Positions 1,013-45,807 of a stretch of 46,883 bases of DNA are shown in pieces; position 1 is the stretch's first letter; every line of letters starts with the position of its first letter. Source of the DNA: Prevotella sp. (GTDB taxonomy: Bacteria > Bacteroidota > Bacteroidia > Bacteroidales > Bacteroidaceae); the NCBI GenBank assembly GCA_017445845.1, contig JAFSRY010000070.1:1-46883 (forward strand), read 5' to 3'. Made by a program: the position numbers and the translations under genes. Below the pieces are notes generated by a model. That model saw only the letters and a program-made list of their open reading frames with translations. It ran no database searches and was not told where the DNA came from.

Positions 1013-1915
1013 TTACTTTTGAATGACTTTCTTCCCGTTCAGGATGTAGATGCCTTTTGGTTTAGAGCCTTTCCAAGCCTCACCCCCTACTCCTCTCCAA
1101 GGGGAGAGGGGAGTCATTACTCCTGAGTTTCTTCCGTCCTCCACTCTCTGGGGCTGCTGTATGGCTGTCTCGGTGTCGGCTGAAGTTCCCAAGAATTCGG
1201 CCCGAAGGGTTTCGCGGAACACGTCGACGGTGAGCCGGTAGTATCCGTCGGAGGGTATCTGCCACTTGTTGTCATCGCCGCCCGTACAGAGCTGTGTGGT
1301 CTGGAGTGGCGACTCATCCTGTGTGAAGGGATGGAGTTGCTTGGGGTCCCATGCGTTCTGTCCCATGATTTTGAAGCGTCTGGGCTCAACGTTTTCCGGG
1401 TGTTCACGCAGTTCTCCTGTCCACGTCCAGGTGCACAGCTGGTCTTTCTGGCGTTTGAAGGGCAGCATGACGTACGACTCCCATCCGCACTCTACGCAGC
1501 CTCCTACGATGAAGAGTTCGTCCCATGGCTGGAAGAGTTCGCCTTTGAGTTTTCGTGTGGAGGTGTCGACGGTGAAGCGATATCGGTTTTCTTCGAAGGT
1601 CACGATCCATCCTGGTTCGTCGGCATTGTCCGACAGCTTATAGGCGAGTCCGTTGTTGACGACATACGACTGGTAGTAGCGTGGCACGAGATACTGTGTC
1701 TGGCTGTCGTGTCCGGCGGTGGTCATGACTTTCACTTCGCCTGGCAGCAGTGTGCCGGCAAACTTAAACTGGTGGTTGGGAAAGCGTTCGAGCTGTTGTA
1801 TGCCGCCCGGTACGGCTGAGCCGGTAATCCACAGGTTATCAATATTCTGTGCCCACAGACCCGATGTGCAGAGCCATGCGAGCAGTACGATGAGCTGGTA
1901 TTTCATTTTTTCCAT
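1013..1915 (-). CDS. SusE/SusF-like secreted protein with C-terminal sorting motif
   Basis: 300 residues. The start may be ATG 1915 or ATG 1906; the latter overlaps the stop of the GH31 gene as ATGA, so the two are probably translationally coupled. The N-terminus is a type I signal peptide (MKYQLIVLLAWLCTSGLWAQ). The mature start NLWITGSAVPGGI is typical of the repeated starch-binding-like domains of SusE/SusF outer-membrane proteins (DUF5019/5116 type), and a second such unit seems to begin near ELFIVGGC. It ends KGIYILNGKKVIQK, the short terminal motif of many Prevotella secreted proteins. Just before that motif, about 25 residues (RNSGVMTPLSPWRGVGGEAW) are encoded by a GC-rich palindromic repeat. 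Glycan binding is inferred from the domain type and the GH31 neighbour. Confidence 0.7.
   Translation of the reverse strand: MEKMKYQLIVLLAWLCTSGLWAQNIDNLWITGSAVPGGIQQLERFPNHQFKFAGTLLPGEVKVMTTAGHDSQTQYLVPRYYQSYVVNNGLAYKLSDNADEPGWIVTFEENRYRFTVDTSTRKLKGELFQPWDELFIVGGCVECGWESYVMLPFKRQKDQLCTWTWTGELREHPENVEPRRFKIMGQNAWDPKQLHPFTQDESPLQTTQLCTGGDDNKWQIPSDGYYRLTVDVFRETLRAEFLGTSADTETAIQQPQRVEDGRNSGVMTPLSPWRGVGGEAWKGSKPKGIYILNGKKVIQK
1079..1130. repeat. GC-rich palindromic repeat, in frame inside the SusE/F-like gene
   Basis: The core is CTCCTCTCC AAGG GGAGAGG GGAG, with AGCCTCACCCCC at the left end. It is read in frame by the SusE/F-like gene just before its terminal sorting motif and belongs to the family also seen near 7.28, 11.42, 16.16, 24.95, 38.39, 42.14 and 45.42 kb. 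Confidence 0.75.
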
Positions 1916-4335
1916 ATTGTCTTCTTTCCGTTAATGATGTTCAGGGAGTTGGATGATGGCTGGCTGACCTGACGCCCCTGGAGGTCGTAGATGGGGCTGA
2001 GGTCTGAGGACTGCGGGTCGAGGGTTGAGATGGCGGGGTCGTGGATGCCTACGGTGGGTTCGCAGGTATACTCAACCATTGTCTGGACATCGCATGATGC
2101 TGCAGGAACGCTGACGGTCAGCAGTTCTTTGTCTGCATCGTATTCCCAATCGTCGGTGGCTGTTCCGTCTACCGTGACGGTGAGGGGCTGGCGGACCCCG
2201 TAGAACATCACCTGCCAGGAGCGCTGTGCGGGCATGTCGGGGAAGGTGCCCGTGCGGGGCTCGATGGTCAGTATCACACGGTCGGAGAGGCGTCTCTGCG
2301 AGAATGATGTCGTCGAGAATGCCCCGTGGAGATATGCCTGGCTGTCGCCGTCGTCTTCGTAGAGTGTGCCTGTCCCGTCGGCTCCCGGGTAGACTTTCAG
2401 CAGGAGTCCTTCCGTCGGGGTCTTCAGGTTGCTCACGGCAGGACTGCAAGGCACGATGCTTCCAGCCCGCACGAAATAAGGTATCTCGTCCTGTGCGTAG
2501 CGGTCGGTGAACTCCATGTCGCCCTGTAGCAGTCGGCTTCGGCACACGTCATACCATGTGCCCTCGGGCAGCCAGACGTCGCGCGATGCCCGCTCGCCAT
2601 CCTCGGCTGCCGTGCACACTGGTGCCACGAGCATGTCGGGACCGAAGAAGTATTCGCTTTCGTTGGAATAGGAACGGTTGTCCTCGGGATATTCATAGTA
2701 GAGGGGCCGGCAGATGCTCACCCCGGTCTCGAAGGCCTCGTGCGCGCATGTATATATATAAGGTGTCAGTTCGTAGCGCAGGTTGACGGCATCGAGGAGC
2801 AACGGGAAGTTGGGGTATTTCCAGATGCGCCGCTCGTTGTTGGCCTGGCTGGCACCGTGGGTGCGGAAGATGGGTGAGAAGACTCCGTACTGTAGCCATC
2901 GCAGGTAGAGCTCTGGGTCGGGGTCGGCAACCTGCAGGTGGGCTCCGAGGTCATGCCCCCAATAGCCGAAACAGACGTTGGAGGCCGTCGACGTGAAGTA
3001 GGGTTCGAAGGCCAGCGTGCCAAAGGTGGCAAAGGTGTCGCCCGAGAAGCCGATGGGATAGCGATGGGAGCCCAGTCCGCCCCATCGGTGGAAGATGACG
3101 GGCCGACGGTCTTGCCTGTTCTGTGCCATGTCGTTGTAGAAGACGTGGTTTAGCCAGAAGGTCTGGCTCAGTCCGCTGACGGTGGGATTGAGGAGGTCTT
3201 GCTGCCAGTCAATCCACCAGAAGTCGACTCCTTCCTTTTCGCGTTCGCGGATGATATGGCTGAAGAACGACTGATAGAAGACGGGGTTCTCCAGTTGCCA
3301 GGGCACCCGTGTCTCGGTGGCGGGCAGTCCGAGGTCGTTTCGTATTTCGCTGAAGTGGTCTTCATGATTGCCCACGCCGTCGGCAGGATGTAGGTTGAGG
3401 CTTACTTTCAATCCCTGCCGGTGCATCCAGGTGATGAGTCCCACGGGGTTGGGGATGAGCTGCTTGTTCCAGGTCCAGCCTGTCCAGCCGTCGAGGTGCC
3501 AGTCCATATCCATAATCATCACGTCGATGGGTATCTCGTTCTGTTTCATCTCGTTGACGAGGTTGATGAAGTCCTGCTGCGAGTAGCGTTGATACTTGCT
3601 GTACCAGTAGCCCAGCATGTAGAGGGGCGGCAGGGGCTGTCGTCCGGCCACCTTCACATAGTCTTGCAAGGCTCCTTTGTAGTCGTGTCCGTAGCCCATG
3701 AAGTACCAGTCGGTGGCTGTCTTGTCGATGGGCTCTGCCACCCAGGGGATGCCGTCCACACTGTCGTCGAAGGCAAACGTTGTCGAGCCGTCGCCGCGTT
3801 TCGTGCGCGGAGACTCATCGATGATGGCCCATCCGTCGCGCGAGAGCAATCCTTTTTCTAAGTCAACGCGCCGCGTGTCGCCGATGTCGGCATCGAGGGT
3901 TCGCGTCGTTCCCATCAGGTTGAAGGCATCGTCGCGGCCGGGATACCATGTGACGGTGCGCCCGTTCAGGTCGAAGTCGATGCGCAGGTTTTCGTGTGCT
4001 GTCGTCGTTGCCGACAGGTTACTGCCGATGCGATAGCGCAGCCGCAGGGCTTCGGTGGTGATGTAGAGGTAGCCGTCGCGCTCCTCCTTGGCGAACGAGG
4101 GCACCGGCAGCCGGCGGTTGATGACGGCAAAGGTGGCGCGGTCTTCAAAGAGGTCGCGCGAAGAATACTGGATGCGAATCATCCGTGGGGTCAGCACGGT
4201 GAAGCGCACATGGCTGGACTGCACGACGGCAGCCTCGTCGGCCACAGGGTCGGCGGTGCCGTTGTAGGCTTCCTGCCCCCATGCTGAGACTGCCATAAGC
4301 ATGGCCAAGAGTGTAGGTAATAATTTTCTTTTCAT
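1903..4335 (-). CDS. GH31 family glycosidase (alpha-glucosidase/alpha-xylosidase type), secreted
   Basis: 810 residues from ATG 4335; the frame is open ten codons further up, but this start opens a clear signal peptide (MKRKLLPTLLAMLMAVSAWG). An N-terminal beta domain is followed by a GH31 TIM barrel with DVMIMDMDWH near 271-280. The nucleophile Asp lies in FWWIDWQQD (D376) and the acid/base Asp in FSGDTFATF (D433), then a beta domain with ALVAP-like LVAPV. The C-terminus (PIYDLQGRQVSQP..NIINGKKTIWKK) is the Prevotella-type sorting tail. It cleaves terminal alpha-linked glucose or xylose from oligosaccharides at the cell surface or periplasm; the exact linkage cannot be read from sequence. 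The start lies 11 bases after the nuclease-helicase stop and the stop overlaps the SusE/F-like start. Confidence 0.92.
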   Translation of the reverse strand: MKRKLLPTLLAMLMAVSAWGQEAYNGTADPVADEAAVVQSSHVRFTVLTPRMIRIQYSSRDLFEDRATFAVINRRLPVPSFAKEERDGYLYITTEALRLRYRIGSNLSATTTAHENLRIDFDLNGRTVTWYPGRDDAFNLMGTTRTLDADIGDTRRVDLEKGLLSRDGWAIIDESPRTKRGDGSTTFAFDDSVDGIPWVAEPIDKTATDWYFMGYGHDYKGALQDYVKVAGRQPLPPLYMLGYWYSKYQRYSQQDFINLVNEMKQNEIPIDVMIMDMDWHLDGWTGWTWNKQLIPNPVGLITWMHRQGLKVSLNLHPADGVGNHEDHFSEIRNDLGLPATETRVPWQLENPVFYQSFFSHIIREREKEGVDFWWIDWQQDLLNPTVSGLSQTFWLNHVFYNDMAQNRQDRRPVIFHRWGGLGSHRYPIGFSGDTFATFGTLAFEPYFTSTASNVCFGYWGHDLGAHLQVADPDPELYLRWLQYGVFSPIFRTHGASQANNERRIWKYPNFPLLLDAVNLRYELTPYIYTCAHEAFETGVSICRPLYYEYPEDNRSYSNESEYFFGPDMLVAPVCTAAEDGERASRDVWLPEGTWYDVCRSRLLQGDMEFTDRYAQDEIPYFVRAGSIVPCSPAVSNLKTPTEGLLLKVYPGADGTGTLYEDDGDSQAYLHGAFSTTSFSQRRLSDRVILTIEPRTGTFPDMPAQRSWQVMFYGVRQPLTVTVDGTATDDWEYDADKELLTVSVPAASCDVQTMVEYTCEPTVGIHDPAISTLDPQSSDLSPIYDLQGRQVSQPSSNSLNIINGKKTIWKK

Positions 4336-4346: not shown

Positions 4347-7300
4347 TTAGTCGTTTGGAGAGCACTTACTAATATAGTCTATAAGGTTTGCGAAGAGTGC
4401 GTTTTGGCGGAGCGTAGGCTCATGGCCGATGAGGATCAGCTCGCGTCGGGCACGTGTCAGTGCCACGTTCAGCTTGCGGTCGATGGGGTGGCCGTCTTCA
4501 TAGAAGGTGTTGGCCGTCAGGAAGTCGAGCTGATAGCGATGGGTGACGGCAAAGGAATAGATGATGACATCGCGCTGCGAACCCTGATAGCGTTCCACGG
4601 TGTCGATGCTGACGTCGAGGAGTTCCGACCGCCCGAGCCGACTGATTTCCTGGCGTATCAAGGCTATCTGGCTGCGATAAGGTACGATGACGCCGACGGT
4701 CTTCTGCACGGAGAACTGCTGCCGGTAGCGCTCATAGACTTCCGTCAGGAGCTGTGCTGTCAGCCGGGCTTCGGCCAGCAACGGGTCGGTGCCGTCCCTT
4801 GCGGAAGTGTCGACAAAGCGAAGGCGTGGTGTCTCGCTTTCTTCCTGCTGATGGGGCAGCGGCACGGGCTGCAACTGCTCGCGGGCATAGAACATGTGCG
4901 AGGGCCAGGCTGCAATGGCCGGATGCATCCGGCCATGACGGTTGAGGACTCCTACGAACTCGGTGCGTCCTGACTCTCGTTCCAGCCGGAGTAGACGTTC
5001 GAAGAGCGACTGCCGGCAGTTGTCGAGGCCGATGGCCCGCAACTGTGGGTCGTCGACGGACGACTCTTCCTCGCTTTGCCTGACGACTGCCGGCAGCTGC
5101 TTGTGGTCGCCGATGAGGATGAACTTCATGCCGGGTCGGCAGAGCAGGCCGATGATGTCGGGTTCAAGTATCTGGCTGGCCTCATCGACAATGAGGGTCG
5201 AGAACGTTTTCAGGCTGAAGAGGTAGGAACGGGATGACAAGGTGGCTGTTGTGGCACAGACAATCGGTACCTGCAGTATGCGCTGGCGCAAGGTGGCGAG
5301 GTGCGGTTCACGGGCAGCCACCTCGCTGACGAGATGGTCACGATAGAGCGGATCGCAACTGTAGGGACTGCCCAGCCGCAGATAATCGAGGCCGTGTTCG
5401 GTGAGCATGGCACAAATCTCGTCGACGGCGCGGTTGGTGTAGGCGGTGAGGAGGAGTGAGGTTTGTGACTCCAGCAGTTCCTTGACCAGGAACTGCAGGG
5501 CCATGGAAGTCTTGCCTGTCCCTGGCGGACCTATCAAGAGAAAGTAGTCGTCGGCCTGCTTGGCCCGCAGGACGATATCATCGTAGGATGGATGATAGGA
5601 ACGAGTCAACGTGCGGGACGCATCGCGGCGCGGCGGCCGTTGGCCTAACAGCAAGTCGCGCTCTGACTGCGGTGCCGAGACAAAGGCATGAAGATGGCCG
5701 ACGGCAGCGGTCGACATGCTGTCGCTATGGGCATGTTCGATGGCATAGCAGCGGTCGTCGGAGGGATTGAAGAGGGTTGGATTCTGCTGTGCGTCGTTCA
5801 ATTGGACGATGACTTCATCGGGCTTTATGTCGGCCAATGCTCCCTTAAAAAGGATATGATGACGGGCATCGGGGTCGTTGCCCGGGTCGTAGGCATAGAT
5901 GTAGACGAGGTCGCCCCGCCGGAAGTTGGGAGCCGACTGGAGCACTGCCCCTGCAGCCCTCTGCAGGGTGATGAGGTCGAAGGGGGCTCCGGGCAGGCTG
6001 CTCTCCTTCTTGACGACCGTGAGGTTGACAAGGATATTTCCCGACTGCAGCTTCTCGGTGAGCGGCATGTTCCAAAGGTCGGCGGCACTGTTGCCTTGTC
6101 CTCCTGCCACCCCTACTTTGGCCAACAGCTGCTCGCGCGCCACAAAGGTCATCATGCGTGAGAAGTAGCTGCGTTCCAAAGGGCTGAGCTGGTGGAGCGG
6201 TGAAAGGATCTGCACAAGCGGCGGCAACAGATAATCCCTATAGAAGGAACCGTCGAGGCCTTCGGTATTGAGCACTTCCGGTTGCAACTGGTCGAGGTAC
6301 GGGTCGAAACCACCCAAGGCGATGTCGAACTCCTGGGCAACAATGAGGTTGCGCAGGCGGATGGCTTCGCGGAAGAGTTTCTGCAGGTTCTCCACACCAA
6401 TCATCCCGTCGGGCAACGGATAGCGTGAGTAGAGCAGGCGAATGTCGGTCTGACGGCGCGGCTTCTGGAAGTTATATTCCATCACGGCATAATAGAGCAG
6501 AGCCTGCACATAGTGTTTCTCCACTTGGACACTGCCGTATCGGCTTCGCGTGTGGCGCTCGATGAAGATGTTGCGGCCTGCCTTTTGCTCCACCAGCAAC
6601 CGCATGTCCTGCGTCATCAGGTCGACGCGACCTTGAAGTCCCAGACATTCGCTGACGAACGACGGTTCCAGCAAGGCTTCCTCGCGGCGGTATTCCTTAG
6701 AGAATATATCGTCTACAGCCTGCCGGATGTTTTTAACCTGCCGGACAGCATCCTCCTTAAAAGCCTGTGGATTGAAGTCGGGACAGGTGACGAATTCAAG
6801 TGCCTTCTCTTGGAAGTTACGCCGCATCGTTGCCTTGAGCCGGTCGGCCGTCGAGGGTTGGTTGATGATGTCGTCGAGGGCATCGCCGGCAAAGTTTCCC
6901 AACAGGGTGTGGCGCGTGTTGGGACGTGGCTTCATCCGGCTGACCACATATTGCAGGGGGTGGTGGCCATAGTCCTCAAAACAACCTGCCAGCACACTGA
7001 TGTCAATCAGAAAGTCAGGTTCGACGACAATGAGCTGCGGCACAAGGCATTCATCGGCAAGGGTGCTGTCGAGGAGGTTGAGTTGCATTCCCTCACGCAG
7101 GACGGACCGCAGGTAGGTGAAGTCAATATATTCGGGGGTGTGTACATAGTCGACGGTGAACCACCGTGTAGTTTCATCCTGATGGGTTGCCACACGAATG
7201 GTTTCGTCGTCCCAACTTTCAACGGTGCAACGGAGGTACTTGAGGGTTGACCCGCCAGTCTCTTCAGTCCTCATCCCGAGAACTCCCCTCGGGAGGGGCT

Positions 7301-7679
7301 GTTGAGGAATTCGAACGGCCACTGATGATGGCACAGCTACCCCGAACACTGCGGAGATGAACAGGCTGAGGGCCCTGCAGTCGTAGAGAAGGTCGGTCGT
7401 GGTGAGTGGTTGCGACACGTTGCTATGGTGCCGCATCTGCTGAATGTCAATGCGGTCTTTCGCCTTGATATGATGCCGCTTGCAAAGGGCATCGACTTCC
7501 GACGACAGATTGCCAAACCGGAAGTTTGTTCCGCGCAGCCCTTCGGCACATGTCATCACCAATACTTCGTGCAATATGCGGTTGAGCTCGGCAGTAGGCA
7601 ACGGGGCAGCGAGAGCCACCTCTTCTACTCTTCCGAACAACTCATCGGCGGTGATGTAGTGCACAGGGACTGACATCAA
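4347..7679 (-). CDS. Dna2-like fused PD-(D/E)XK nuclease and SF1 helicase
   Basis: 1110 residues. A Cas4/Dna2-type nuclease core is visible at GRVD (350-353), EQK (364-366) and the QxxxY motif QALLY (392-396). The helicase core has Walker A GPPGTGKT (717-724), DEAS (832-835), GDHKQLP (857-863), NRHGRMHP (913-920, a variant of the Upf1-type QYRMHP), YQGSQRD (1031-1037) and ALTRAR (1073-1078). This is the Upf1/Dna2 class of superfamily 1, expected to unwind and cut DNA or process RNA-DNA ends in the cytosol. Residues about 125-147 are encoded by a palindromic repeat and look like an insertion. The start follows the adaptor gene stop by two bases, so it sits inside an efflux operon, an unexpected place for a DNA enzyme. 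Confidence 0.88.
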   Translation of the reverse strand: MMSVPVHYITADELFGRVEEVALAAPLPTAELNRILHEVLVMTCAEGLRGTNFRFGNLSSEVDALCKRHHIKAKDRIDIQQMRHHSNVSQPLTTTDLLYDCRALSLFISAVFGVAVPSSVAVRIPQQPLPRGVLGMRTEETGGSTLKYLRCTVESWDDETIRVATHQDETTRWFTVDYVHTPEYIDFTYLRSVLREGMQLNLLDSTLADECLVPQLIVVEPDFLIDISVLAGCFEDYGHHPLQYVVSRMKPRPNTRHTLLGNFAGDALDDIINQPSTADRLKATMRRNFQEKALEFVTCPDFNPQAFKEDAVRQVKNIRQAVDDIFSKEYRREEALLEPSFVSECLGLQGRVDLMTQDMRLLVEQKAGRNIFIERHTRSRYGSVQVEKHYVQALLYYAVMEYNFQKPRRQTDIRLLYSRYPLPDGMIGVENLQKLFREAIRLRNLIVAQEFDIALGGFDPYLDQLQPEVLNTEGLDGSFYRDYLLPPLVQILSPLHQLSPLERSYFSRMMTFVAREQLLAKVGVAGGQGNSAADLWNMPLTEKLQSGNILVNLTVVKKESSLPGAPFDLITLQRAAGAVLQSAPNFRRGDLVYIYAYDPGNDPDARHHILFKGALADIKPDEVIVQLNDAQQNPTLFNPSDDRCYAIEHAHSDSMSTAAVGHLHAFVSAPQSERDLLLGQRPPRRDASRTLTRSYHPSYDDIVLRAKQADDYFLLIGPPGTGKTSMALQFLVKELLESQTSLLLTAYTNRAVDEICAMLTEHGLDYLRLGSPYSCDPLYRDHLVSEVAAREPHLATLRQRILQVPIVCATTATLSSRSYLFSLKTFSTLIVDEASQILEPDIIGLLCRPGMKFILIGDHKQLPAVVRQSEEESSVDDPQLRAIGLDNCRQSLFERLLRLERESGRTEFVGVLNRHGRMHPAIAAWPSHMFYAREQLQPVPLPHQQEESETPRLRFVDTSARDGTDPLLAEARLTAQLLTEVYERYRQQFSVQKTVGVIVPYRSQIALIRQEISRLGRSELLDVSIDTVERYQGSQRDVIIYSFAVTHRYQLDFLTANTFYEDGHPIDRKLNVALTRARRELILIGHEPTLRQNALFANLIDYISKCSPND
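7251..7312. repeat. GC-rich palindromic repeat inside the nuclease-helicase gene
   Basis: The core CTCCCCTCGGGAGGGG (7283-7298) is a near-perfect palindrome. It lies in frame and encodes the stretch PQQPLPRGVLGMRTEETGG. Confidence 0.7.
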
Positions 7680-8860: not shown

Positions 8861-10105
8861 CTACTCCTCCCTCATGGCATCAACAGGTTTGATGGCCATG
8901 GCCCGCGAGGCTGGGGCGAGACCTGCAAGGACTCCGAGAAGGCTGAGCAGCGCAACGGCTCCGAGCGCCGTCCAGAAGCCCACCTGAAAGTGAGCCGACG
9001 GAATACCGTCGGTGGTATTCGCAAGTTCGAGCATCTGCAGGATGATGACGGCAAAGAGGATGCCGCCCATGCCCGCCACGGCAGTCAGGAAGATGCTTTC
9101 GCTGATTACCTGCGAAAGAATATTTCGGGGTGTGGCGCCGATGGCACGCCGGATGCCAATCTCTGTCGTGCGCTCCTTGACGGTCACCATCATGATGTTG
9201 CTGACACCGATGGCTCCTGCCAACAACGTTCCGATGCCGACAAGCCAAATGAGCAGGTTGACACCGCGGAACATGCTGTCCATCATGCCAAACAGAATCT
9301 CGGTGTTGAACACGGTGACAGCCTTCTCGTCGGTAGGGTCTACATGGTGGGCACGGGCAATGACCTCGCGAATTCGTGGAGCCACCTCACTCATGGTGAC
9401 ACCACGCTTGCCCGTCAGACATATCATATCAACCTGATTGCCCATGTGATAGGCTTGCTGCATGAGACTCATGGGAACACAGATGCTTTCGTCGGCATTA
9501 CCGTTGATGCTGACATTGCCTTCGTTATAGTCTACGCCCACCACGCTATAGTAGGTGGAGTCGATGCGTACCAACTCGCCGCAGGGGTTGCCACCTTGCG
9601 GGAAGAGCGTCTTATAGACTTTCTTTCCGATGACACAAACCTTTCGCCGTTGGGCGATGTCCATGTCGTTGAGGAAACGGCCGTAACGCAATCGGGGTTG
9701 TTCGACGTTGGCATAGTCGGGCAGCAGTCCCTTCACGTTACAAGAGAACTTCTTGTCGCCATGAACAGCATTGCATCCCCATCGCGAGAGATTGGGTGTG
9801 ACAATGTCGAGTTCGGGAACCTGAGCCTTCAAGCGTTCTATGTCCTTATAATCCATCACCCACCAGCGTCCCTTCCTGAACCCGTCGTATGGCTTGGTGG
9901 TGGTCTGTGCGAAGACGAAGCCGGCATTGGTGGCAAAGCCTTCGAACTGTTTCGACAACATCTCCTTCATGCCGGCTCCACCTCCGATGAGGCCTACCAA
10001 CATGAAGACACCCCAGAACACGCCGAAGCCTGTCAGCAGCGAACGCACCTTGTTGCGGGTCAGCGTCTCCAGTATCTCTTGGTAGGTGTCGATGTCTATT
10101 CTCAT
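8861..10105 (-). CDS. MacB/FtsX-type ABC transporter permease (second of pair)
   Basis: 414 residues. The first membrane segment (LLTGFGVFWGVFMLVGLIGG, about 24-43) precedes a long periplasmic MacB_PCD-like domain (about 45-275). Three membrane segments follow near the C-terminus (LLIWLVGIGTLLAGAIGVSN, the AVAGMGGILFAVIIL region, and ALGAVALLSLLGVLAGL), and it ends PASRAMAIKPVDAMREE. The conserved coupling stretch MVTVKERTTEIGIRRAIGAT contacts the ATPase. Its ATG overlaps the stop of the preceding permease as ATGA, so the pair is co-translated and presumably forms a heterodimer. It works with the ATPase at 11449-12114 and the adaptor at 7682-8779. Confidence 0.92.
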   Translation of the reverse strand: MRIDIDTYQEILETLTRNKVRSLLTGFGVFWGVFMLVGLIGGGAGMKEMLSKQFEGFATNAGFVFAQTTTKPYDGFRKGRWWVMDYKDIERLKAQVPELDIVTPNLSRWGCNAVHGDKKFSCNVKGLLPDYANVEQPRLRYGRFLNDMDIAQRRKVCVIGKKVYKTLFPQGGNPCGELVRIDSTYYSVVGVDYNEGNVSINGNADESICVPMSLMQQAYHMGNQVDMICLTGKRGVTMSEVAPRIREVIARAHHVDPTDEKAVTVFNTEILFGMMDSMFRGVNLLIWLVGIGTLLAGAIGVSNIMMVTVKERTTEIGIRRAIGATPRNILSQVISESIFLTAVAGMGGILFAVIILQMLELANTTDGIPSAHFQVGFWTALGAVALLSLLGVLAGLAPASRAMAIKPVDAMREE

Positions 10106-11358
10106 TCTGCTCTCAGTGCTTCTATGGGACGGATATTAGCAGCCTTACGGGCTGGTATGAACCCGGCGATGGTGCCGGCGATAATCATGACAAGCGTGGC
10201 CTCGATACAGGTGGCGATGCCCACCGTGGGGTCGACAAACATAGTGGCTTCGAAGAGACCCGTGCTCACCTTCTCATGCCCCAGCGTGGCATCCATATAA
10301 TGATTGGCGGCGATGCCCAGCAACATGCCGATATATCCGAAGAAGGTGGTGATGACGATGCTCTCGATGATGATGAGTCGGAGTATCTGTGACGGCTTGG
10401 CACCGATGGCTTTGCGGATGCCGAACTCGCGGGTGCGCTCCTTGACGGTGATGAGCATGATGTTCGAAACGCCGACGATGCCGGAGAGAAGGGTAAAGAT
10501 ACCGATTATCCAAAGTGACGTGCGGATGATGTTCATACCCGTATTCATCTGGAGGTTCTGCGTAAAGCGGTTCCACAGCCACAAGGCACTCTCGTCGTCG
10601 GGTGCAGCGCGGTGGTTCTTGAGCACTCGGGCGCGGTAGGCCTTCTCGAAGGCTTCATTATCCTTCATGGAGTTCAACCCATGGAACGAGAACATCAGGT
10701 TGCCGACGAGGTCACCGCGGTTATACATGGTGCGTAGCGTACTGAAGGCGGTGTAGACACTGGAACTCATACTACTCTGGTCGGCCTTGGTAATGCCCAC
10801 CACCTGAAAGGCGATGTTATCAAGTTTCAGATGTCGGCCGATGAGGGCAGAAGGATTTCCCGGAGAGAGTTCCTTGGCTTGGTCTTCGCTGATGACGAGC
10901 ACCTTACGCAGGTTTCTGATGTCGATGTCGTTGATGAAGCGACCGTAGCGCATCTCGGTCTTATTGATGACGGCATGATTGGGGAAGACTCCCGAAAGCT
11001 GGGCGTTGAGGTAGTATTCGCCGTTGCTGACGGTGACCGCCGACTGCGAGAGTTCAGCTCCGACCAGATCGACATGTTCGGGAAAATCGCGGGCGGTCAC
11101 ATCAAAGTCTTTCTGCTGCAACTGTATCCACCGGCCCTCCTTCAGTCCGTCGTAGGGTTTTGATGTCTGCCAGCCGAACACCATCATTGAGTTGTTGAGA
11201 AAACGGTCAGAGTTCTGGGTGACGGCATGGATGAGACCGTTGCCGGCACCTAAGAGGGTGATGAGCATGAAAATGCCCCACGCCACGGCAAACCCCGTTA
11301 GCGTGGTGCGCAGCTTGTTACGCTTCGCCGTTGACCATATTTCTGTCAGTATCTCCAA
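10102..11358 (-). CDS. MacB/FtsX-type ABC transporter permease (first of pair), TTG start
   Basis: 418 residues with the same layout as its partner: N-terminal segment LTGFAVAWGIFMLITLLGAG, a large periplasmic domain, and three C-terminal segments after SLWIIGIFTLLSGIVGVSNI, with coupling motif TVKERTREFGIRKAIGAK. It ends PIEALRAE. No ATG is available at the N-terminus. The first plausible codon is TTG 11358-11356 (or ATT 11364), and the frame is closed by TAA a few codons earlier. The upstream DNA from 11359 is dispersed repeat, so repeat insertion may have displaced the original start codon. The stop overlaps the next permease start. Confidence 0.9.
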   Translation of the reverse strand: MEILTEIWSTAKRNKLRTTLTGFAVAWGIFMLITLLGAGNGLIHAVTQNSDRFLNNSMMVFGWQTSKPYDGLKEGRWIQLQQKDFDVTARDFPEHVDLVGAELSQSAVTVSNGEYYLNAQLSGVFPNHAVINKTEMRYGRFINDIDIRNLRKVLVISEDQAKELSPGNPSALIGRHLKLDNIAFQVVGITKADQSSMSSSVYTAFSTLRTMYNRGDLVGNLMFSFHGLNSMKDNEAFEKAYRARVLKNHRAAPDDESALWLWNRFTQNLQMNTGMNIIRTSLWIIGIFTLLSGIVGVSNIMLITVKERTREFGIRKAIGAKPSQILRLIIIESIVITTFFGYIGMLLGIAANHYMDATLGHEKVSTGLFEATMFVDPTVGIATCIEATLVMIIAGTIAGFIPARKAANIRPIEALRAE

Positions 11359-11460
11359 TTCAATGAGTAATTAGTAAAAAGCCCACCCCAACCCTCCCCA
11401 AGGGAGGGAGGACCTGCCGGAGTTGGACTCCCCTCCCTTTGGGAGGGGTTAGGGGTAGGC
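11359..11460. repeat. Large palindromic repeat between the ATPase and permease genes
   Basis: The left arm (AGCCCACCCCAACCCTCCCC, from 11381) is nearly the inverse of the right arm (GGAGGGGTTAGGGGTAGGCT, up to 11461), each with an inner CCTCCC/GGGAGG core. A TGAGTAATTAGTAA tract at 11363-11377 flanks it. The right end contributes the last codons and TAA stop of the ABC ATPase gene. In mRNA it would fold into a strong hairpin between two operon genes. Confidence 0.8.
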
Positions 11461-12114
11461 TATGACTCCGTCCACGATGCGGATGATGCGCTTCGTCTGA
11501 TGAGCCACGTTGGGGTCGTGGGTGACGATGATTTCCGTCATGTGGTCTTGCTCGTTGAGTTCCTTCAGCAGCTGCATCACCTCGACGGAAGTCTTCGAGT
11601 CGAGGGCACCCGTCGGCTCGTCGGCCAGGATGATGCGGGGCTGCGTGATGAGTGCACGGGCAATGGCGACACGCTGCCGCTGACCACCCGACAGTTCGTT
11701 GGGATAGTGGGAGGCCCAGTCGAGCAGCCCCAACCGTTCCAGATACTCCAGCGCCATCTGGTGGCGTTTCCTGCGCGACACACCCTGATAGAACAGCGGC
11801 AACTCTACATTCTCCACTGCCGTCTTGAAGCCGATGAGGTTGAACGACTGGAAGATGAAGCCTATCATGCGGTTACGGTATTCGGCAGCCTTCCGCTCCG
11901 AGAGGTTCTTGATCAATGTGCCGTCGAGCCAGTATTCGCCGGTATCGTAGTTGTCGAGAATGCCCAATATATTCAATAATGTGGACTTTCCCGAGCCCGA
12001 TGCGCCCATGATGCTCACGAACTCGCCCGCCCCGATGTCAAGCGTGATGCCTTTGAGCACATGCAGCGGCTGCGCTCCGAAGTAGGTCTTGTTGATGTCG
12101 TCGAGATGGATCAT
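11449..12114 (-). CDS. ABC transporter ATPase, MacB/LolD type
   Basis: 221 residues from ATG 12114, five bases after the TlpA-like gene stop; a longer frame reaches into that gene but the family starts at MIHLDDINKTY. Walker A GASGSGKST is at 37-45, Q-loop in FIFQSFNLIG, signature LSGGQ at 141-145, Walker B ILADEP ending at 167, D-loop GALDS and H-loop H199. This is the LolD/MacB class that powers mechanotransmission by FtsX-type permeases rather than classical transport through them. The final residues (VIAYP) and stop are encoded by the palindromic repeat at 11359-11460. Confidence 0.95.
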   Translation of the reverse strand: MIHLDDINKTYFGAQPLHVLKGITLDIGAGEFVSIMGASGSGKSTLLNILGILDNYDTGEYWLDGTLIKNLSERKAAEYRNRMIGFIFQSFNLIGFKTAVENVELPLFYQGVSRRKRHQMALEYLERLGLLDWASHYPNELSGGQRQRVAIARALITQPRIILADEPTGALDSKTSVEVMQLLKELNEQDHMTEIIVTHDPNVAHQTKRIIRIVDGVIAYP

Positions 12115-12118
12115 TTTC

Positions 12119-16114: not shown

Positions 16115-16243
16115 AAATGAGAAATGAGGAACCCTTCCAGAAGGCTCTCCTCCCTTTGGGGGAGGTCGGGAAGGGTTCCTCATTTCTCATTCCTCATTCC
16201 TCATTGGCATTCCCTCCCCTTGGGTAGGGTTAGGGAAAGGTTC
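16107..16243. repeat. Composite palindromic repeat between convergent GH78 and pullulanase genes
   Basis: A perfect 22-bp inverted repeat pairs 16117-16138 (ATGAGAAATGAGGAACCC..) with 16169-16190, enclosing the GC-rich core TCCTCCCTTTGGGGGAGG. Further CTCATTCC units and a second GC-rich half (CCCTCCCCTTGGGTAGGG, 16212-16229) follow. No T-run follows the stem, so it is not a standard terminator. Confidence 0.85.
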
Positions 16244-36388: not shown

Positions 36389-36404
36389 TTCTCATTCCTC
36401 ACAA
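36372..36404. repeat. ATGAG repeat forming the hemolysin III stop and protease start
   Basis: Minus strand TGAGGAATGAGAAATGAGG: the first TGA ends the hemolysin III gene (36401-36399) and a later ATG (36388-36386) starts the protease gene. Confidence 0.8.
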
Positions 36405-37052
36405 ATTCAACAGCATGTCCCACACCGCAATGATATGGCAGACACTGCCCGCCAAGACAAAGAAGTGGAACACCGTATGCATGAACGGACGACTCTTCAG
36501 ACTATAGAAGACAGCACCCGTCAGGTAACACACGCCCTCGGCAATAATCCAGCTGACAGCGCCGACACTCACATTGTCGACCAGCGGCTTAAAAGCCACC
36601 AACACACTCAGCCCCATCAGACAGAAACACACCGTCTCCAGATGGCTGTGGTCTTTAAGACGGACGAAACTCGCTATCGTACCCGCCACCGCTGCCACCC
36701 ACACAAAGGCAAACAGCGCCCAACCCCAGCCGCCAGCCTGACGAAGCGCCACCAACGTGATGGGAGAATAAGAACCTGCTATATGCCAGTAGATGGCGGC
36801 ATGGTCCCACTTGCGCAGCCGATGCTTCCAACGGCTGCCCGACGGTGCAGCATGATAGACCGTCGACGCCACATAAGACATCAGCATACCAAACAGATAA
36901 AGCACCACACCTGCCGTAGCCCAGCCGTTTCCGTTACGGCCACACCAAATCAGAAAAGCAATGCCTACGGCAATGCCAAGAAGGATGCCCGCACCATGCG
37001 ACCACGCATTCCAAAGCTCCTCCGTACGACTGAAAAAACCTTGTCTGTCCAT
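36399..37052 (-). CDS. Hemolysin III / PAQR-family membrane protein
   Basis: 217 residues with seven predicted helices. Family metal-site motifs are present: SYVASTVYHAAP with a following WDHAAIYWHIAGSYSPI, and the C-terminal HTVFHFFVLAGSVCHIIA. Members are related to adiponectin receptors and may be zinc-dependent amide hydrolases; hemolysis is not a safe inference. A minus-strand TAATTTTG box at 37068-37061 would put the start of transcription within a few bases of the ATG, so the mRNA may be almost leaderless. Divergent from greA. Confidence 0.9.
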   Translation of the reverse strand: MDRQGFFSRTEELWNAWSHGAGILLGIAVGIAFLIWCGRNGNGWATAGVVLYLFGMLMSYVASTVYHAAPSGSRWKHRLRKWDHAAIYWHIAGSYSPITLVALRQAGGWGWALFAFVWVAAVAGTIASFVRLKDHSHLETVCFCLMGLSVLVAFKPLVDNVSVGAVSWIIAEGVCYLTGAVFYSLKSRPFMHTVFHFFVLAGSVCHIIAVWDMLLNL

Positions 37053-38369: not shown

Positions 38370-38407
38370 GAGCCCCCCAACCCAAAGGGAGAAGGTTGGG
38401 GGGTGGC
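38370..38407. repeat. GC-rich palindromic repeat between convergent genes
   Basis: AGCCCCCCAACCC (from 38371) is inverted as GGTTGGGGGGTGG (to 38407) around AAAGGGAGAA. It lies between the HIT gene terminator and the 3' end of the unknown secreted protein. Confidence 0.75.
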
Positions 38408-38428
38408 CTTGCTTTCTTCTATAGCCTC

Positions 38429-40423: not shown

Positions 40424-40455
40424 TTGGTTGTCTACTTGTTTACTTGTCTACTAAC
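40424..40455. repeat. CTACTTGTCTACT-type repeat
   Basis: TTGTCTACTTGTTTACTTGTCTACT: short tandem units, filling the gap between ispF and the unknown secreted gene and overlapping the ispF stop. Confidence 0.6.
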
Positions 40456-40933
40456 AAATCATTTCTATCAGGCCGACGGCATATGCAGCGAGTCCTTCTT
40501 CACGGCCGACGAAGCCGAGGTGTTCAGTGGTTGTGGCCTTGATGGAGATGGCATCGGGGTCGATGCCGATGACGTCGGCCAGACACTGTTGCATGGCAGG
40601 AATGTGAGGGTTGAGTTTCGGGTGCTGGGCGCATACCGTAGCATCGATGTTTCCCACTCGGTAGCCCTTGGTGGCAATCAGTCTGACGGTGTCACGCAGG
40701 ATGATCTTACTGTCCATGCCGAGGGTCTTTTCGGAGTTGTCGGGGAAGTGATAGCCGATGTCGCGCATGTTGGCGGCTCCCAAGAGTGCGTCGCAGATGG
40801 CATGGATGAGGACGTCGGCATCGCTGTGCCCGAGTAGTCCCTGTGTATGTTCAATCTTTATTCCACCGAGTATGAGGTCGCGACCCTCTACCAACTGATG
40901 GACATCATAGCCGAAACCAATGCGAAAGTTCAT
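40451..40933 (-). CDS. ispF: 2-C-methyl-D-erythritol 2,4-cyclodiphosphate synthase
   Basis: 160 residues from ATG 40933; a longer frame overlaps porV and is not supported. Zinc ligands D10 and H12 (GYDVH) and H44 (VLIHAICD), the loop GHSDADV (35-41), and the C-terminal ATTTEHLGFVGREEG are all present. It closes the cyclodiphosphate ring in the non-mevalonate isoprenoid pathway in the cytosol. It starts 10 bases after porV, so an essential housekeeping gene shares the secretion-gene transcript. Confidence 0.97.
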   Translation of the reverse strand: MNFRIGFGYDVHQLVEGRDLILGGIKIEHTQGLLGHSDADVLIHAICDALLGAANMRDIGYHFPDNSEKTLGMDSKIILRDTVRLIATKGYRVGNIDATVCAQHPKLNPHIPAMQQCLADVIGIDPDAISIKATTTEHLGFVGREEGLAAYAVGLIEMIC

Positions 40934-40943: not shown

Positions 40944-42206
40944 TTATTTAAACAAATCCTTGATACCGTCCATATCGAACGAGAGGGTGAAGCGCATGGT
41001 CTGGTCGAGGGGGTTTGACTGTGCCGTTGAGATGACATAGCCTGCATCAAGCGAGAAGACGCTCATCTTGAAGCCGGCTCCGACGGTGAAATACTTACGG
41101 TTACCCTTGCTCTCCGACTCATGGTGATAACCGGCACGGATGCTGAACTGGTCGTGGTAGACATACTCGGCACCGACGCTCCACTGTATCTCCTCCAATT
41201 CCTCGCTGAAGCCGTTGGGGGCGTCGTGGAAGCTCTTGAACATGCCTCCGATGCTCGACTGGTCGTAGTATTTCTTGCGCACATAGTCCTCGTAGTCGAG
41301 ATAGGTGTCCTTCTCGGGGTCGGCCTTATACTGGTCTTCCGAGGGATAGGTGGGCACGAGCAGCTTGTTGGCATCGGCGGCAATGGTGAAGCGGTTGTAT
41401 TCGTCGACGGGTATCATCAGCGAGGCACCCAGACGGAGGTTTGTCGGGATGAACTCACTGTCGTCGCTGCCGCTGAAGTTTATCTTTGAACCGATGTTCG
41501 ACACGTTCATACCGAGTCCCACCTGACATTCGCGGTCGCCGAGGTTCAGGAAGTTCTGATAGTAGAGTGACAGGTCGGCAGCGAAGGCTCCTGCCGTGGG
41601 TTTCTCTTCGTCGGTCGAATACGACATGTCAGAGAAGAGGTAGCGCAGGCCTGCAGCCATCGAGAAGTTCTCGCTGAGCATGATGGAGTAGGCGACGTCG
41701 AGCGACATCTCATAGGGGTGGATGGTGTAGGCGTCGGCATCGAGGCTTGTATACACCTCACCGAGCGAGAAATAGTTGAGTGCACCGGAGATAGCGGAGT
41801 AGTCGCCGATACGATAGTAACCCGACAGATAGGCGAGGTCCATATCGTTGACCAACTGGCGCAGCCACGGTGTGTAGTTCAGTGCTACTCCGGCCCGTGA
41901 GATGGTGAAGGGATACTTGGCAGGGTTCCAATACTGCGACACGACGTCAGGGTCGGTGGCAGCACCCACGTCACCCATACCGCCGGCACGGGCGTCGGGG
42001 GCAATGGTCTGCGAGACGAGGGCGGTGTGGACGGGGTTAAACATCTTTCGCTTCGTGTCCTGAGCCTGAAGGGAGAGCGGCAGGAGAAGAAGGAGGAGGA
42101 GGAGCCCACCCCCTGTTAACTCCCCTCTGAACCCCATGTTTGGCGAGGGGCGAAAACCCCAAGAGAGGGAGGGCTGGTTACTTTTTCTATTTAAAAACTT
42201 CAACAT
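40944..42206 (-). CDS. porV: PorV (LptO) outer-membrane protein of the type IX secretion system
   Basis: 420 residues from ATG 42206. A FadL-like beta-barrel of the PorV family: SQTIAPDARAGGMGDVGAATDPDVVSQYWNPAKYPF at the mature start, AVALNYTPWLRQL-like strands, and ending DQTMRFTLSFDMDGIKDLFK. PorV carries folded cargo from the translocon to the PorU sortase. The signal peptide is split: MLKFLNRK, then about 26 residues encoded by a palindromic repeat (SNQPSLSWGFRPSPNMGFRG and ELTGGG), then the hydrophobic LLLLLLLLPLSLQAQ. The leader n-region is thus unusually long but still basic and followed by an intact hydrophobic core. Lies 55 bases after porU. Confidence 0.92.
   Translation of the reverse strand: MLKFLNRKSNQPSLSWGFRPSPNMGFRGELTGGGLLLLLLLLPLSLQAQDTKRKMFNPVHTALVSQTIAPDARAGGMGDVGAATDPDVVSQYWNPAKYPFTISRAGVALNYTPWLRQLVNDMDLAYLSGYYRIGDYSAISGALNYFSLGEVYTSLDADAYTIHPYEMSLDVAYSIMLSENFSMAAGLRYLFSDMSYSTDEEKPTAGAFAADLSLYYQNFLNLGDRECQVGLGMNVSNIGSKINFSGSDDSEFIPTNLRLGASLMIPVDEYNRFTIAADANKLLVPTYPSEDQYKADPEKDTYLDYEDYVRKKYYDQSSIGGMFKSFHDAPNGFSEELEEIQWSVGAEYVYHDQFSIRAGYHHESESKGNRKYFTVGAGFKMSVFSLDAGYVISTAQSNPLDQTMRFTLSFDMDGIKDLFK
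42102..42180. repeat. GC-rich palindromic repeat inside the porV signal peptide
   Basis: The ends are AGCCCACCCCC (42103-42113) and GGGAGGGCT (42167-42175), with inner CCCCTC/GAGGGG pairs. It is in frame with porV between the basic start and the hydrophobic core of the leader. Confidence 0.8.
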
Positions 42207-42216
42207 AATCTTTTTT

Positions 42217-42282
42217 AGTTGACAAGTTAACGAGTTATTACTCATTTCTCATTCCTCATTACTAATTACTAATTACTATCAG
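42217..42282. repeat. AT-rich and ATGAG repeats at the porU-porV junction
   Basis: AGTTGACAAGTTAACGAGTT (42217-42236), then CTCATTTCTCATTCCTCATT (42241-42260) and three TACTAATTACTAATTAC units. The last codons of porU (ISN, stop) come from this tract. Confidence 0.7.
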
Positions 42283-45200: not shown

Positions 45201-45807
45201 GCAGCGCACCGCCATAGCCATAGACCCTCACCTTCGACGCATCGGAGAAACCTGCCTGACGCACCAGCGCATCGGTAATCTCATAGACCCCAGTTGCCGG
45301 CACCCGTATCTTTGCCCAGCGGCCGGAGGCGAGAAGCGAACCTTCCACCTCTCCGCTGCCCTGCTCCCGAAAGACATTAGCCTTCACCCTTGTTCCGGGG
45401 GAGGCATCATTGCGGCCACACCCCTCGTGAGAGGGACGGGGAACTGCGGTCACCCTCATCATGAAGCTCACTAAAATCTGTTGACGCCCGTCGCGCCACA
45501 CCCAGGGTGTGAAGAGCACTTCCAACGCTCCACGCTTACGGTCCAGGGCGACGCGCTGTTCCACCAGCGGCATCGGCGGCAGCAGGCTGTCGACGGTCTG
45601 AGGGGCATCGATAAATTCGGGATAGAGCAGGCTCACCGTATACAACGAGTCCTGATAGTCGGCGGGCAACGGGAACGACCACACCAGCCGGGGCACACCA
45701 CCGTCCGTCAGCCCCACCTCTTCCGCGGTCAGGTTGACAAACTGCGTGCGCTGAGCCTTCAGCCCCATCACCGCCAGCAGCAGTACCAGTGTCAGTCGTA
45801 TCTTCAT
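42262..45807 (-). CDS. porU: PorU, type IX secretion C-terminal sortase (C25 peptidase)
   Basis: 1181 residues. A signal peptide (MKIRLTLVLLLAVMGLKAQ) and beta-rich N-terminal region precede the gingipain-like C25 domain (about 415-800). Catalytic His is in DYAGHGSEV (H688) and Cys in ITASCDLMPF (C721); their spacing of 33 equals that of H657/C690 in Porphyromonas gingivalis PorU. A C-terminal part with Ig-like strands follows and ends in a type-A-like domain (VFDMSGRQLWSH..GIYLYRMRL..RKLIVISN). PorU removes the C-terminal signal of cargo and joins the protein to lipopolysaccharide or a linker at the cell surface. Residues about 122-144 (RPSHEGCGRNDASPGTR) are encoded by a palindromic repeat. 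First gene of the porU-porV-ispF run. Confidence 0.94.
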   Translation of the reverse strand: MKIRLTLVLLLAVMGLKAQRTQFVNLTAEEVGLTDGGVPRLVWSFPLPADYQDSLYTVSLLYPEFIDAPQTVDSLLPPMPLVEQRVALDRKRGALEVLFTPWVWRDGRQQILVSFMMRVTAVPRPSHEGCGRNDASPGTRVKANVFREQGSGEVEGSLLASGRWAKIRVPATGVYEITDALVRQAGFSDASKVRVYGYGGALQPEVLSRSYLAATDDLQEVPTATINGRRLFYAVGPVTWSTDDAQRRTRNHYSDYGYYFLTQGDEEPLKVSDSEFLGSFYPSPDDYHSLYEVDGYAWYPGGRNLYDREQITTQKAKQVVLRNEGHAATGTLSVRLSGGTTSGGQILLNDSLLGTFSFTVNDEYTKGVESTGIYSIKGLKDENTVSIVCTRGGPLRLDYVSMAWDTPRPAPDLQGGTFPAPEFVYNITNQNLHGDPQADMVIIIPTSQKLRAEAERLKAFHEQHDSLRVNIVPADELYNEFSSGTPDANAYRRYMKMLYDRAGSDSDLPRYLLLFGDCMWDNRLLTAECAKLDADDLLLCFESENSLHKVNCYIDDGFFGLLDEGEGGNPQSADKLDIAIGRFPVNSVEEAKIMVDKTIAYAENENAGAWQNTLVFMGDDGDDNRHMRDLNEAAEEIMTLHPGYTVKKIIWDAYDRESSSTGYRYPEVTRLIKQAQQQGALIMDYAGHGSEVQVSHESVLRINDFAAFSNRNLPLWITASCDLMPFDGISETIGETAVLNPRGGAVAFFGTTRTVYATQNKVINMAFLRHVLSKVDDKPITIGEAQRRAKNELIEKGTDLSTNKLQYSLLGDPALALHQPQMEVIVDSINGQAVADIADNLPQMKAGSIANVAGHIDGAEDFNGVVALAVRDSRELITCKLNNTHEADVPFTYYDRTNTLFQGTDSVRGGKFRFNFAIPKDLNYSGGTGLINLHAYNSSHTLDAHGYSEDFRVGGSDLQSGDPTGPSIYCYLNAPSFNNGDHVNSTPYFVAQLSDSDGINASGSGIGHDLELVIDGEMSRTYVLNDNFQFDFGSYTSGTTYYSIPELTEGEHTLLFRAWDIMNNSSVATLNFRVAKNLEPVIYDISCTNNPARTQTTFIVSHDRTGSAVDIEIEVFDMSGRQLWSHLDDGITTSGAYTYDWNLCVDGGQQLQTGIYLYRMRLTSEGTTHTSKARKLIVISN
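45385..45445. repeat. Palindromic repeat inside porU
   Basis: CACCCTTGTTCCGGGGGAGG..CACACCCCTCGTGAGAGGG: GC-rich halves around ATCATTGCGG, in frame in the N-terminal region of porU. More diverged than the other copies. Confidence 0.55.

What the first reader, a model, noticed from the sequence alone, without database searches (positions are those of the whole stretch)
1079..45445. Dispersed GC-rich palindrome family that lands in frame inside genes
Eight sites (about 1.10, 7.28, 11.42, 16.16, 24.95, 38.39, 42.14, 45.42 kb) share a CCCTCCC..GGGAGGG core, and several share ends like AGCCCACCCC. Five of the eight lie inside coding genes and all five keep the frame, adding roughly 15-26 residues rich in P, G, S and R. 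Each is located at a place likely to tolerate insertion: a signal peptide, just before a sorting tail, an N-terminal domain. This recalls the Rickettsia palindromic elements known to insert in frame; I do not know a named counterpart in Prevotella. The bias to frame-preserving insertion could reflect selection alone or an element whose length is a multiple of three.
Basis: partly seen in the sequence, partly recalled or inferred. Interest (0 to 1): 0.8.

Follow-up and report, generated by a model that had tools for sequence, protein, structure and literature searches.

The report
Triplex-DNA repeats tied to DUF559 nuclease
Short GC-rich DNA repeats scattered through this bacterium, some of them in frame inside proteins, belong to a family of potential three-stranded-DNA repeats that in many bacterial phyla flanks one poorly understood nuclease gene (DUF559), which points to an unrecognised kind of small mobile element and names its likely enzyme.

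Summary
The palindrome family is real, but 3 of the 8 window sites hold up: 1.08-1.11, 11.38-11.46 (an inverted pair) and 16.15-16.18 kb. Genome-wide there are dozens of copies, in frame in about a dozen genes; orthologues lack the segments tested in PorV, GH3 and IspF. Survivorship explains the frame.

Each unit is a hairpin plus a third strand mirroring its purine arm: a class II intrastrand triplex motif, like E. coli TM_ECO (PMC4666352), for which no mobility gene was found. Inverted unit pairs flank a DUF559 (PF04480) Vsr-like endonuclease gene. In the genus, copy number follows DUF559 (median 27 vs 0, p=2e-16) far more than Y1 transposases. In 80 DUF559 loci from many phyla, motif density is 3.5/kb within 250 bp of the gene and 0.02-0.2/kb beyond; 62 of 80 have one within 300 bp, 43 on both sides. 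At ffh-folD this genome has the full element, its closest relative an internally deleted one, and 14 of 18 relatives read have none.

Shown: structure, linkage, alternative alleles. Inferred: that DUF559 mobilises the repeats.

The parts
1076..1113 (-). Triplex-motif unit in frame near the C-terminus of gene 1013-1915 (reads PLSPWRGVGGEAW before the tail KGIYILNGKKVIQK); purine strand is the minus strand
   Evidence: CM E 3e-8 (a seed of the model), structural scan 1078-1113, translation
1013..1915 (-). Host gene of the 1.10-kb unit; sub-threshold SusF_SusE match, C-terminal sorting-type tail
   Evidence: three complete orthologues end before the tail, the closest (L179/L266, 57% id) has a shorter hairpin remnant DLSPKGERSG at about the same place
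11379..11462 (.). 84-bp inverted pair of triplex-motif units between an FtsX-like ABC permease gene (10102-11358) and an ABC ATPase gene (11449-12144); the right unit overlaps the 3' end of the latter
   Evidence: CM E 8e-6 and 2e-9, structural scan; in five of 18 relatives' loci the two genes abut within 3-5 bp; ABC names by motif recall
16145..16177 (+). Intergenic triplex-motif unit inside a larger palindrome with heptamer-type flanks
   Evidence: CM E 0.012, structural scan 16146-16175
16210..16242 (-). Weak unit next to the 3' end of gene 16244-18250
   Evidence: CM E 0.16; not found by the structural scan
38371..38409 (.). Possible decayed copy, intergenic
   Evidence: CM E 0.7 and 0.9, chance level
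7268..7310 (-). Possible decayed copy in gene 4347-7679 (AAA-domain protein)
   Evidence: partial CM match 7283-7301, E 4; no orthologue test
42096..42178 (-). Extra segment in the PorV signal peptide (gene 40944-42245), probably a decayed copy
   Evidence: no CM or structural hit; segment absent from 29 orthologues aligned; PorV by Pfam PF19572
24925..24968 (+).
   Evidence: no match at E<=5, no structural hit
45412..45445 (-).
   Evidence: no hit; linker length varies among 29 orthologues; peptidase C25 by Pfam
40451..40933 (-). IspF-like gene directly after PorV: site without the DUF559 element that G151 and G155 carry fused in frame to IspF here
   Evidence: translation, G151/G155, IspF within 300 bp of PorV in 18 of 22 relatives' loci that could be read; IspF by motif recall

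Best explanation
The palindromes are ends or remnants of a family of small mobile elements. Each unit (about 35 bp) is a C-rich/G-rich hairpin followed after a short loop by a third G-rich stretch that mirrors the purine arm: a class II intrastrand triplex motif. Two such units in opposite orientation bracket one gene, a DUF559 (PF04480) Vsr-like PD-(D/E)XK endonuclease (527 bp in all at ffh-folD of this genome). Paired elements without the gene (84 to about 240 bp) and single units are non-autonomous derivatives. Shown: the unit structure, the linkage to DUF559 in this genus and in other phyla, matched inverted ends, an internally deleted derivative at an orthologous site, empty sites, and in-frame copies absent from orthologues. 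Inferred: the unit folds when single-stranded, DUF559 recognises it and cuts it or the target, and repair or replication spreads it, as RAYT transposases are thought to do for REPs but with an unrelated nuclease. Insertions within genes survive only where they keep the frame and the place tolerates about 10-30 residues; since 88% of the unit's frames are open, such survivors arise easily.
For: Mirror design: in 79 unique asymmetric cases the third strand fits the mirror of the arm better than its direct copy in 58 and worse in 6; mean score .915 against .838 (sd .008, maximum .868 in 2000 permutations); 10 distinct asymmetric arms with a perfect mirror. Linkage: R1 copies per genome median 27 with DUF559 (121 genomes) and 0 without (79), p=1.8e-16, Spearman .68; 69 R1 hits in 98 kb of DUF559 loci against 12 in 321 kb of PorU and GH3 loci. 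Other phyla: 137 motifs in 39 kb within 250 bp of DUF559, 27 in 327 kb beyond; 62 of 80 loci within 300 bp, 43 on both sides; same scan 21 of 30 DUF559 loci of the genus, 0 of 30 Y1_Tnp loci, 2 of 58 PorU/GH3 loci; shuffled flanks 0-1 hits against 102. Ends: nearest left and right units inverted in 59 of 63 loci and more alike within a locus (.883) than between loci (.714; highest of 400 permutations .765). Derivation: at ffh-folD the full element here and in G051, the same ends with most of DUF559 deleted in G135, a 166-bp pair in G172, no motif in 14 of 18 genomes. In-frame insertion. Enzyme kinship: 3hrl 'Endonuclease-Like Protein' E 3e-39, 3r3p 'Mobile intron protein' E 5e-4; YcjD named as PD-(D/E)XK with Vsr similarity (PMC1189080, passages).
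Against: No cutting or movement was shown. 18 of 80 DUF559 loci (and 9 of 30 in the genus) have no motif within 300 bp. 38 of 79 genomes without a DUF559 match still have at least one R1 copy, 11 of them 10 or more, and 13 of 121 with DUF559 have none (many genomes are incomplete). The 80 named loci are the best of 529 by likeness to YcjD, not a random sample. The genus loci were mostly fetched for R1 hits, related copies are not independent, and the own genome alone is inconclusive (.820 vs .799, 11 to 5). Motif orientation differs between clades: third strand towards the gene in 37, away in 22. In E. coli K-12 only the 3' side of ycjD carries a motif, 166 bp away. Y1 presence also shows a weak association with R1 (p=.02). 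Holder et al. found TM_ECO always intergenic and no mobility gene in E. coli K-12.
Confidence: 0.6

Rival explanations
1. The triplex motifs are not mobile as such; they spread and vanish by replication slippage and recombination at non-B DNA, and DUF559 is a repair nuclease kept near structures that it processes.
For: Holder et al. tie TM motifs to small intergenic changes and propose replication slippage (PMC4666352, section 20 part 1 and passages). A tandem duplication of the end unit is seen in G135. Vsr-like nucleases are repair enzymes in known cases (PMC12907096, passages).
Against: Gene-bearing and gene-less elements with matched inverted ends at the same and at different sites look like insertion units; the motif density falls at once beyond 250 bp from DUF559.
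Confidence: 0.2
2. They are ordinary MITEs moved by a still unseen transposase, with DUF559 as a passenger gene.
For: Inverted paired ends and gene-less copies of 106-239 bp are MITE-like; no target duplication or cutting by DUF559 was shown.
Against: The linkage to DUF559 recurs in many phyla with locus-specific ends, and no other gene was seen between paired units in the three cases read.
Confidence: 0.12
3. They are REPs moved by RAYT (Y1) transposases.
For: REPIN-like inverted pairs; PF01797 in 110 of 200 genomes; weak association with R1 presence (>=1 copy in 89 of 110 vs 57 of 90, p=.007); one RAYT (L141) stands between two R1 arms.
Against: No PF01797 match in the own genome (75% complete); no motif within 300 bp in 30 Y1 loci; 10 of 13 RAYT flanks read carry GTAGGGGC/GTAGGGAC-tagged palindromes instead; at 20 or more R1 copies no association (p=.19).
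Confidence: 0.05
4. In-frame copies reflect an element whose length is a multiple of three.
For: The intragenic copies that were read keep the frame.
Against: Lengths vary (84, 106-239, 527 bp) and 8 of 16 paired elements in relatives are divisible by 3; only intact genes are recognised, so frame-breaking copies go unseen.
Confidence: 0.03

Closest known systems
Intrastrand triplex motifs TM / TM_ECO, Holder et al. 2015 (PMC4666352: abstract, sections 15, 16, 18, section 20 part 1, passages)
   Same: C-rich arm, short loop, G-rich arm, short loop (often TTA or CCG), mirror G-rich third strand; dispersed; sometimes inverted pairs (5 in E. coli K-12)
   Different: Arms here are mostly shorter and of several kinds; copies occur in frame inside genes (TM_ECO in E. 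coli K-12 always intergenic); linkage to DUF559 was not reported there
Rickettsia palindromic elements (RPE) and intragenic GTAG/CGTC REPs (PMC3733652: sections 15, 16 and passages)
   Same: Short palindromes, singly or as dimers, in frame in coding genes and adding 20-30 residues
   Different: Neither GTAG nor CGTC tag; mirror third strand; another linked enzyme
REPIN/RAYT and TIRtron/TIRYT systems (PMC3733652 section 16)
   Same: Short repeats as inverted pairs around a dedicated nuclease or transposase gene, with many gene-less copies; the TIRtron motif GGGGWSAS resembles the third strand
   Different: Their enzyme is a Y1 HUH transposase; here it is a PD-(D/E)XK DUF559 protein, and Y1 loci lack the motif
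Vsr-related homing endonuclease of the mobile-intron kind (PDB 3r3p; EDxHD family cited in PMC9403480, passage)
   Same: Distantly related small nuclease (profile E 5e-4) that serves mobility of its own gene (recalled)
   Different: DUF559 here is in no intron or intein but between inverted triplex motifs, with many gene-less copies
MITEs
   Same: Inverted ends and internally deleted copies
   Different: No target duplication established; partner is not a known transposase

Membership tests
Class II intrastrand triplex motif (general TM class) | Hairpin plus mirror third strand after a short loop | tested here: met
   in the own genome alone the mirror preference is inconclusive
Class II intrastrand triplex motif (general TM class) | Forms a triplex in vitro | not testable with these tools
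   shown for TM_ECO in PMC4666352 (abstract); not for these sequences
TM_ECO in the strict sense | Pattern CCCTCNCCC-N3-6-GGGNGAGGG-N3-GGGNGAGGG | tested here: not met
   the four window units have other arms; many of the 80 named DUF559 loci carry TM_ECO-like sequences
GTAG REP with RAYT | GTAG tag and linked Y1 transposase | tested here: not met
   unit consensus has no such 5' tag; no PF01797 in own genome, 0 of 30 Y1 loci with the motif within 300 bp
CGTC REP / RPE-4, RPE-6 | CGTC tag | tested here: not met
   consensus AGGCCCACCCCCAACCCCTCCCCAAGGGAGGGGAG
Works like Rickettsia palindromic elements | In-frame insertion in coding genes, absent in orthologues | tested here: met
   sequence kinship to RPE not tested
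MITE | Terminal inverted repeats and internally deleted copies | tested here: met
MITE | Target-site duplication | tested here: inconclusive
   flanks at ffh-folD and PorV-IspF too diverged to tell
DUF559 / PF04480 | Match over Pfam's cut-off | tested here: met
   own 7.6e-33, YcjD 1.4e-49, L333 8.4e-41
PD-(D/E)XK Vsr-like nuclease | Fold and catalytic residues | tested here: inconclusive
Enzyme of the repeats | Nuclease activity on the motif | not testable with these tools
   no bench data

The most novel reading that the evidence does not exclude
Intrastrand triplex repeats throughout bacteria (TM_ECO and kin) are the recognition ends of one widespread class of mobile elements whose enzyme is the DUF559 Vsr-like nuclease: a REP-like system built on a DNA triplex and a nuclease fold not known to move short repeats, which also keeps adding in-frame peptides of the PLPLGGVGGG and LTPDPSPRGEG type to proteins.
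Probability: 0.5. Interest if true: 0.92.

Novelty: new variant of a known kind. Interest (0 to 1): 0.85.

Why it matters
Triplex-type repeats were described in hundreds of bacterial genomes with no function and no linked mobility gene (PMC4666352). Tying them to DUF559, a family that Pfam still lists as of unknown function, offers a shared explanation and a test in E. coli K-12 (ycjD). It would add a nuclease type to the enzymes that spread short repeats, explain G/P/S/R-rich peptide inserts in proteins, and account for part of the genome instability ascribed to triplex motifs.

Tried and rejected
RAYT/REP origin: PF01797 searches, R1 near Y1 genes (the 20 loci were partly chosen because R1 hits lay on the same contig) and RAYT flanks, where 10 of 13 carry GTAG-tagged palindromes; rejected as the main explanation.

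G-quadruplex repeats (PMC4692102, outline and abstract only): the G runs would allow a quadruplex, but the mirror placement of A/T across different arms is not needed for one. Known RNA family: Rfam gives only tmRNA in the window and nothing in L003, L272, L273. Length a multiple of three: rejected.

Limits: of the 76 places, 55 were inspected; the 19 lowest-scoring and two that overlap a listed place on the other strand were dropped. The R1 search of 200 genomes scored about 34 candidates per genome, so high counts are floors. In one search, 157 of 398 genomes were not scored. PorU and GH3 'orthologues' are the 29 best loci of each search. DUF559 loci of the genus are the 30 returned, not all matches; one search printed 13 of them. 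Most host-gene names, and ffh, folD, IspF and TrmH, come from motif recall; Pfam confirmed GH3, PorV, peptidase C25, AAA and FG-GAP. Matches to enterotoxin B chains (E 0.005-0.26) were disregarded as chance. The genus is named by no call; 'Prevotella' is untested. Literature: DUF559 14 papers (passages read in three), COG2852/PF04480 5 (titles and abstract starts), DUF559 with repeat and palindrom 2, triplex/ycjD terms 100, of which 25 listed; none seen links DUF559 to dispersed repeats.
Full report
OBSERVATION. The window is contig C28 of a 2.46-Mb, 103-contig, 75.5% complete genome. The exact core occurs at one place. A covariance model from 11 own-genome units finds 11428-11462, 1076-1110 and 11379-11410 strongly (the first two are seeds), 16145-16177 moderately, and the other claimed sites at chance level or not at all. 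A detector that uses only structure finds four units at the same places, and none with arms of 7 or more in 20 dinucleotide shuffles. The family is genome-wide (76 matches at E<=10); 146 of 200 same-genus genomes have at least one match at E<=0.01 (57 of 85 high-quality ones).

IN-FRAME COPIES. Of 55 own-genome places inspected, 10 lie in stop-free stretches of at least 250 codons with at least 40 codons on each side. Examples (gene names mostly by motif recall): three copies in an LptD-like N-terminal linker (SLTPHPSPKGEGNSLTPDPSPRGEG), a pair in a GH3 enzyme, a DsbD-like linker, lipoprotein signal peptides (KPLLIGKGWGWALLLLLLTACGS, LSLGGVGGGLLSSCSD), N-termini of a guanylate-kinase-like and a HAD-like protein (some may lie before the true start), and C-terminal sorting tails. 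Orthologue tests: the GH3 loop reads VLLKN-GSLPLSPSKGKGNSETAKLPLPLERGGE-RLALIG here and VLLQN-NNSILPLKGDE-RIALVG in the closest relative; of 29 orthologues one is broken, three have moderately longer loops and the others short ones. The PorV signal peptide carries a segment absent from the 29 orthologues aligned. IspF of G151 and of G027 carries a loop insert (IPFNLPSR..GG..) that the window's IspF and the other relatives read lack. The PorU site at 45.42 kb fails this test. The frame bias needs no more than survivorship: 292 of 330 frames of the 55 units are open.

WHAT THE UNIT IS. On the purine strand it reads C-rich arm, loop, G-rich arm, 2-5 bases, G-rich third stretch. The third stretch mirrors the arm: GGAGGGG goes with GGGGAGG, GGGGAGG with GGAGGGG, GGAGAGGGG with GGGGTGAGG, AGGGAGGGG with GGGGTGGGT. 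Over 79 unique asymmetric cases mirror beats direct copy 58 to 6 and the mean mirror score exceeds all 2000 permutations; the own genome alone (17 cases, 11 to 5) is inconclusive, and the permutations do not remove relatedness. This is the class II intrastrand triplex design reported for TM_ECO (PMC4666352).

THE LINKED GENE. Inverted unit pairs about 0.5 kb apart enclose one open frame in own C2, G081 and G051. It matches PF04480, DUF559, in own C2 and G081; the G051 copy aligns to the own element at 74%. DUF559 occurs in 121 of 200 same-genus genomes. R1 counts are median 27 with it and 0 without (p=1.8e-16; at least 10 copies in 87 of 121 against 11 of 79), Spearman .68; for Y1 transposase presence it is .16. 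R1 gives 69 hits in 98 kb of DUF559 loci and 12 in 321 kb of control loci.

OTHER PHYLA. A scan of one genome per species with an alignment led by E. coli YcjD gave 529 relatives, of which the best 80 were kept, named, from Gamma-, Beta-, Alpha- and Deltaproteobacteria, Chloroflexi, Gastranaerophilales, Omnitrophota, Kapabacteria, Verrucomicrobia, Levyibacteriota and others. With the structure-only detector the density is 3.48/kb within 250 bp of the gene, then .13.20.046 and .019; 62 of 80 have a motif within 300 bp, 43 on both sides. Controls: Y1 0 of 30, PorU/GH3 2 of 58, shuffled flanks 0-1 hits against 102. Left and right motifs are inverted in 59 of 63 loci and alike within a locus (.883 vs .714). 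The third strand points to the gene in 37 and away from it in 22; the window's genus is mostly of the outward type. In E. coli K-12 a TM_ECO-type motif lies 166 bp past the 3' end of ycjD and a partial hairpin at that end; none was found on the other side. A gonococcal DUF559 gene has a perfect mirror motif on its right and an imperfect one on its left; that 3hrl is the gonococcal protein is recalled.

MOBILITY EVIDENCE. At ffh-folD this genome carries a 527-bp motif-DUF559-motif element. G135 has the same ends but lacks most of the gene and has one end unit duplicated; G051 has a full element; G172 a 166-bp motif pair; G059 another palindrome pair; the other 14 of 18 genomes read have no motif there, and two of the 20 searched gave no match. 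Between PorV and IspF, G151 and G155 carry DUF559 fused in frame to IspF, while the window has 10 bp. In E. coli the fabI-ycjD-sapF interval is at least 80% covered in 3362 of 5426 genomes; the two others opened carry an efflux operon instead, in line with PMC12817139 (passages), which reports ycjD in place of eefRABCD. That is an alternative allele, not proof of insertion.

MECHANISM. Shown: repeat structure, linkage, matched inverted ends, a deleted derivative, alternative alleles, in-frame survivors. Inferred: DUF559 recognises folded ends and promotes excision, copying or insertion. Support by kinship: YcjD as PD-(D/E)XK with Vsr similarity (PMC1189080, passages), 3hrl, and a weaker match to the mobile-intron protein 3r3p. 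Not shown: cutting, movement, target choice.

NOVELTY. Triplex repeats, intragenic REPs and DUF559 nucleases are each known; no link between DUF559 and dispersed repeats was seen in the searches made, which cover open-licence papers only. I file it as a new variant of the short-repeat-plus-enzyme kind; if DUF559 is shown to move the repeats it would deserve a class of its own.

Noticed in passing
window 22515-22916 (+): tmRNA gene (Rfam RF00023, E 7e-57).
   Followed up: no
window 16110-16215, 35288-35327, 36374-36413, 42238-42277: Heptamer-type direct repeats (CTCATTC / AATTAGT kind) in intergenic spots, often next to triplex-motif copies elsewhere in the genome.
   Followed up: no
window 26444-26612: 22-bp tandem repeat, about 6 copies (CAAGCATTGATAAGGGGCTTAA).
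   Followed up: no
L137-L155 RAYT loci: RAYT genes of this genus carry their own GTAGGGGC/GTAGGGAC-tagged palindromes in 10 of 13 flanks read.
   Followed up: partly
L141 (G038:C30) 2640-3730: A RAYT gene with its own REPs stands inside a long inverted repeat whose outer part is the triplex motif; nested insertion or a hybrid element.
   Followed up: partly
L295 (G062), L301 (G155), L315 (G151): DUF559 fused in frame through a triplex-motif peptide to a TrmH-like methyltransferase or to IspF (host names by motif recall). PMC1829167 mentions a DUF559-SPOUT fusion in Alphaproteobacteria (passage).
   Followed up: partly
L117 (G110:C28) 1438-1524: Inverted unit pair in frame within a 905-codon open frame that looks like a cobalamin-synthesis protein.
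   Followed up: no
L003 (own C2:2343-2400): The element end seems to supply a GTG start to the FolD-like gene behind it (read).
   Followed up: no
L407 (G059:C8): At the same ffh-folD spot sits another palindrome pair (GCCCCCTAAGTTAGGGGGC), so the spot may be a hotspot.
   Followed up: no
E. coli fabI-sapF interval: ycjD with its motif and the eef efflux operon are alternative alleles at one place (PMC12817139 passages).
   Followed up: partly
control list: PF04480 rang in only 2 of 14 control genomes and not in an E. coli, although YcjD of K-12 matches PF04480 at 1e-49; reason unknown.
   Followed up: no
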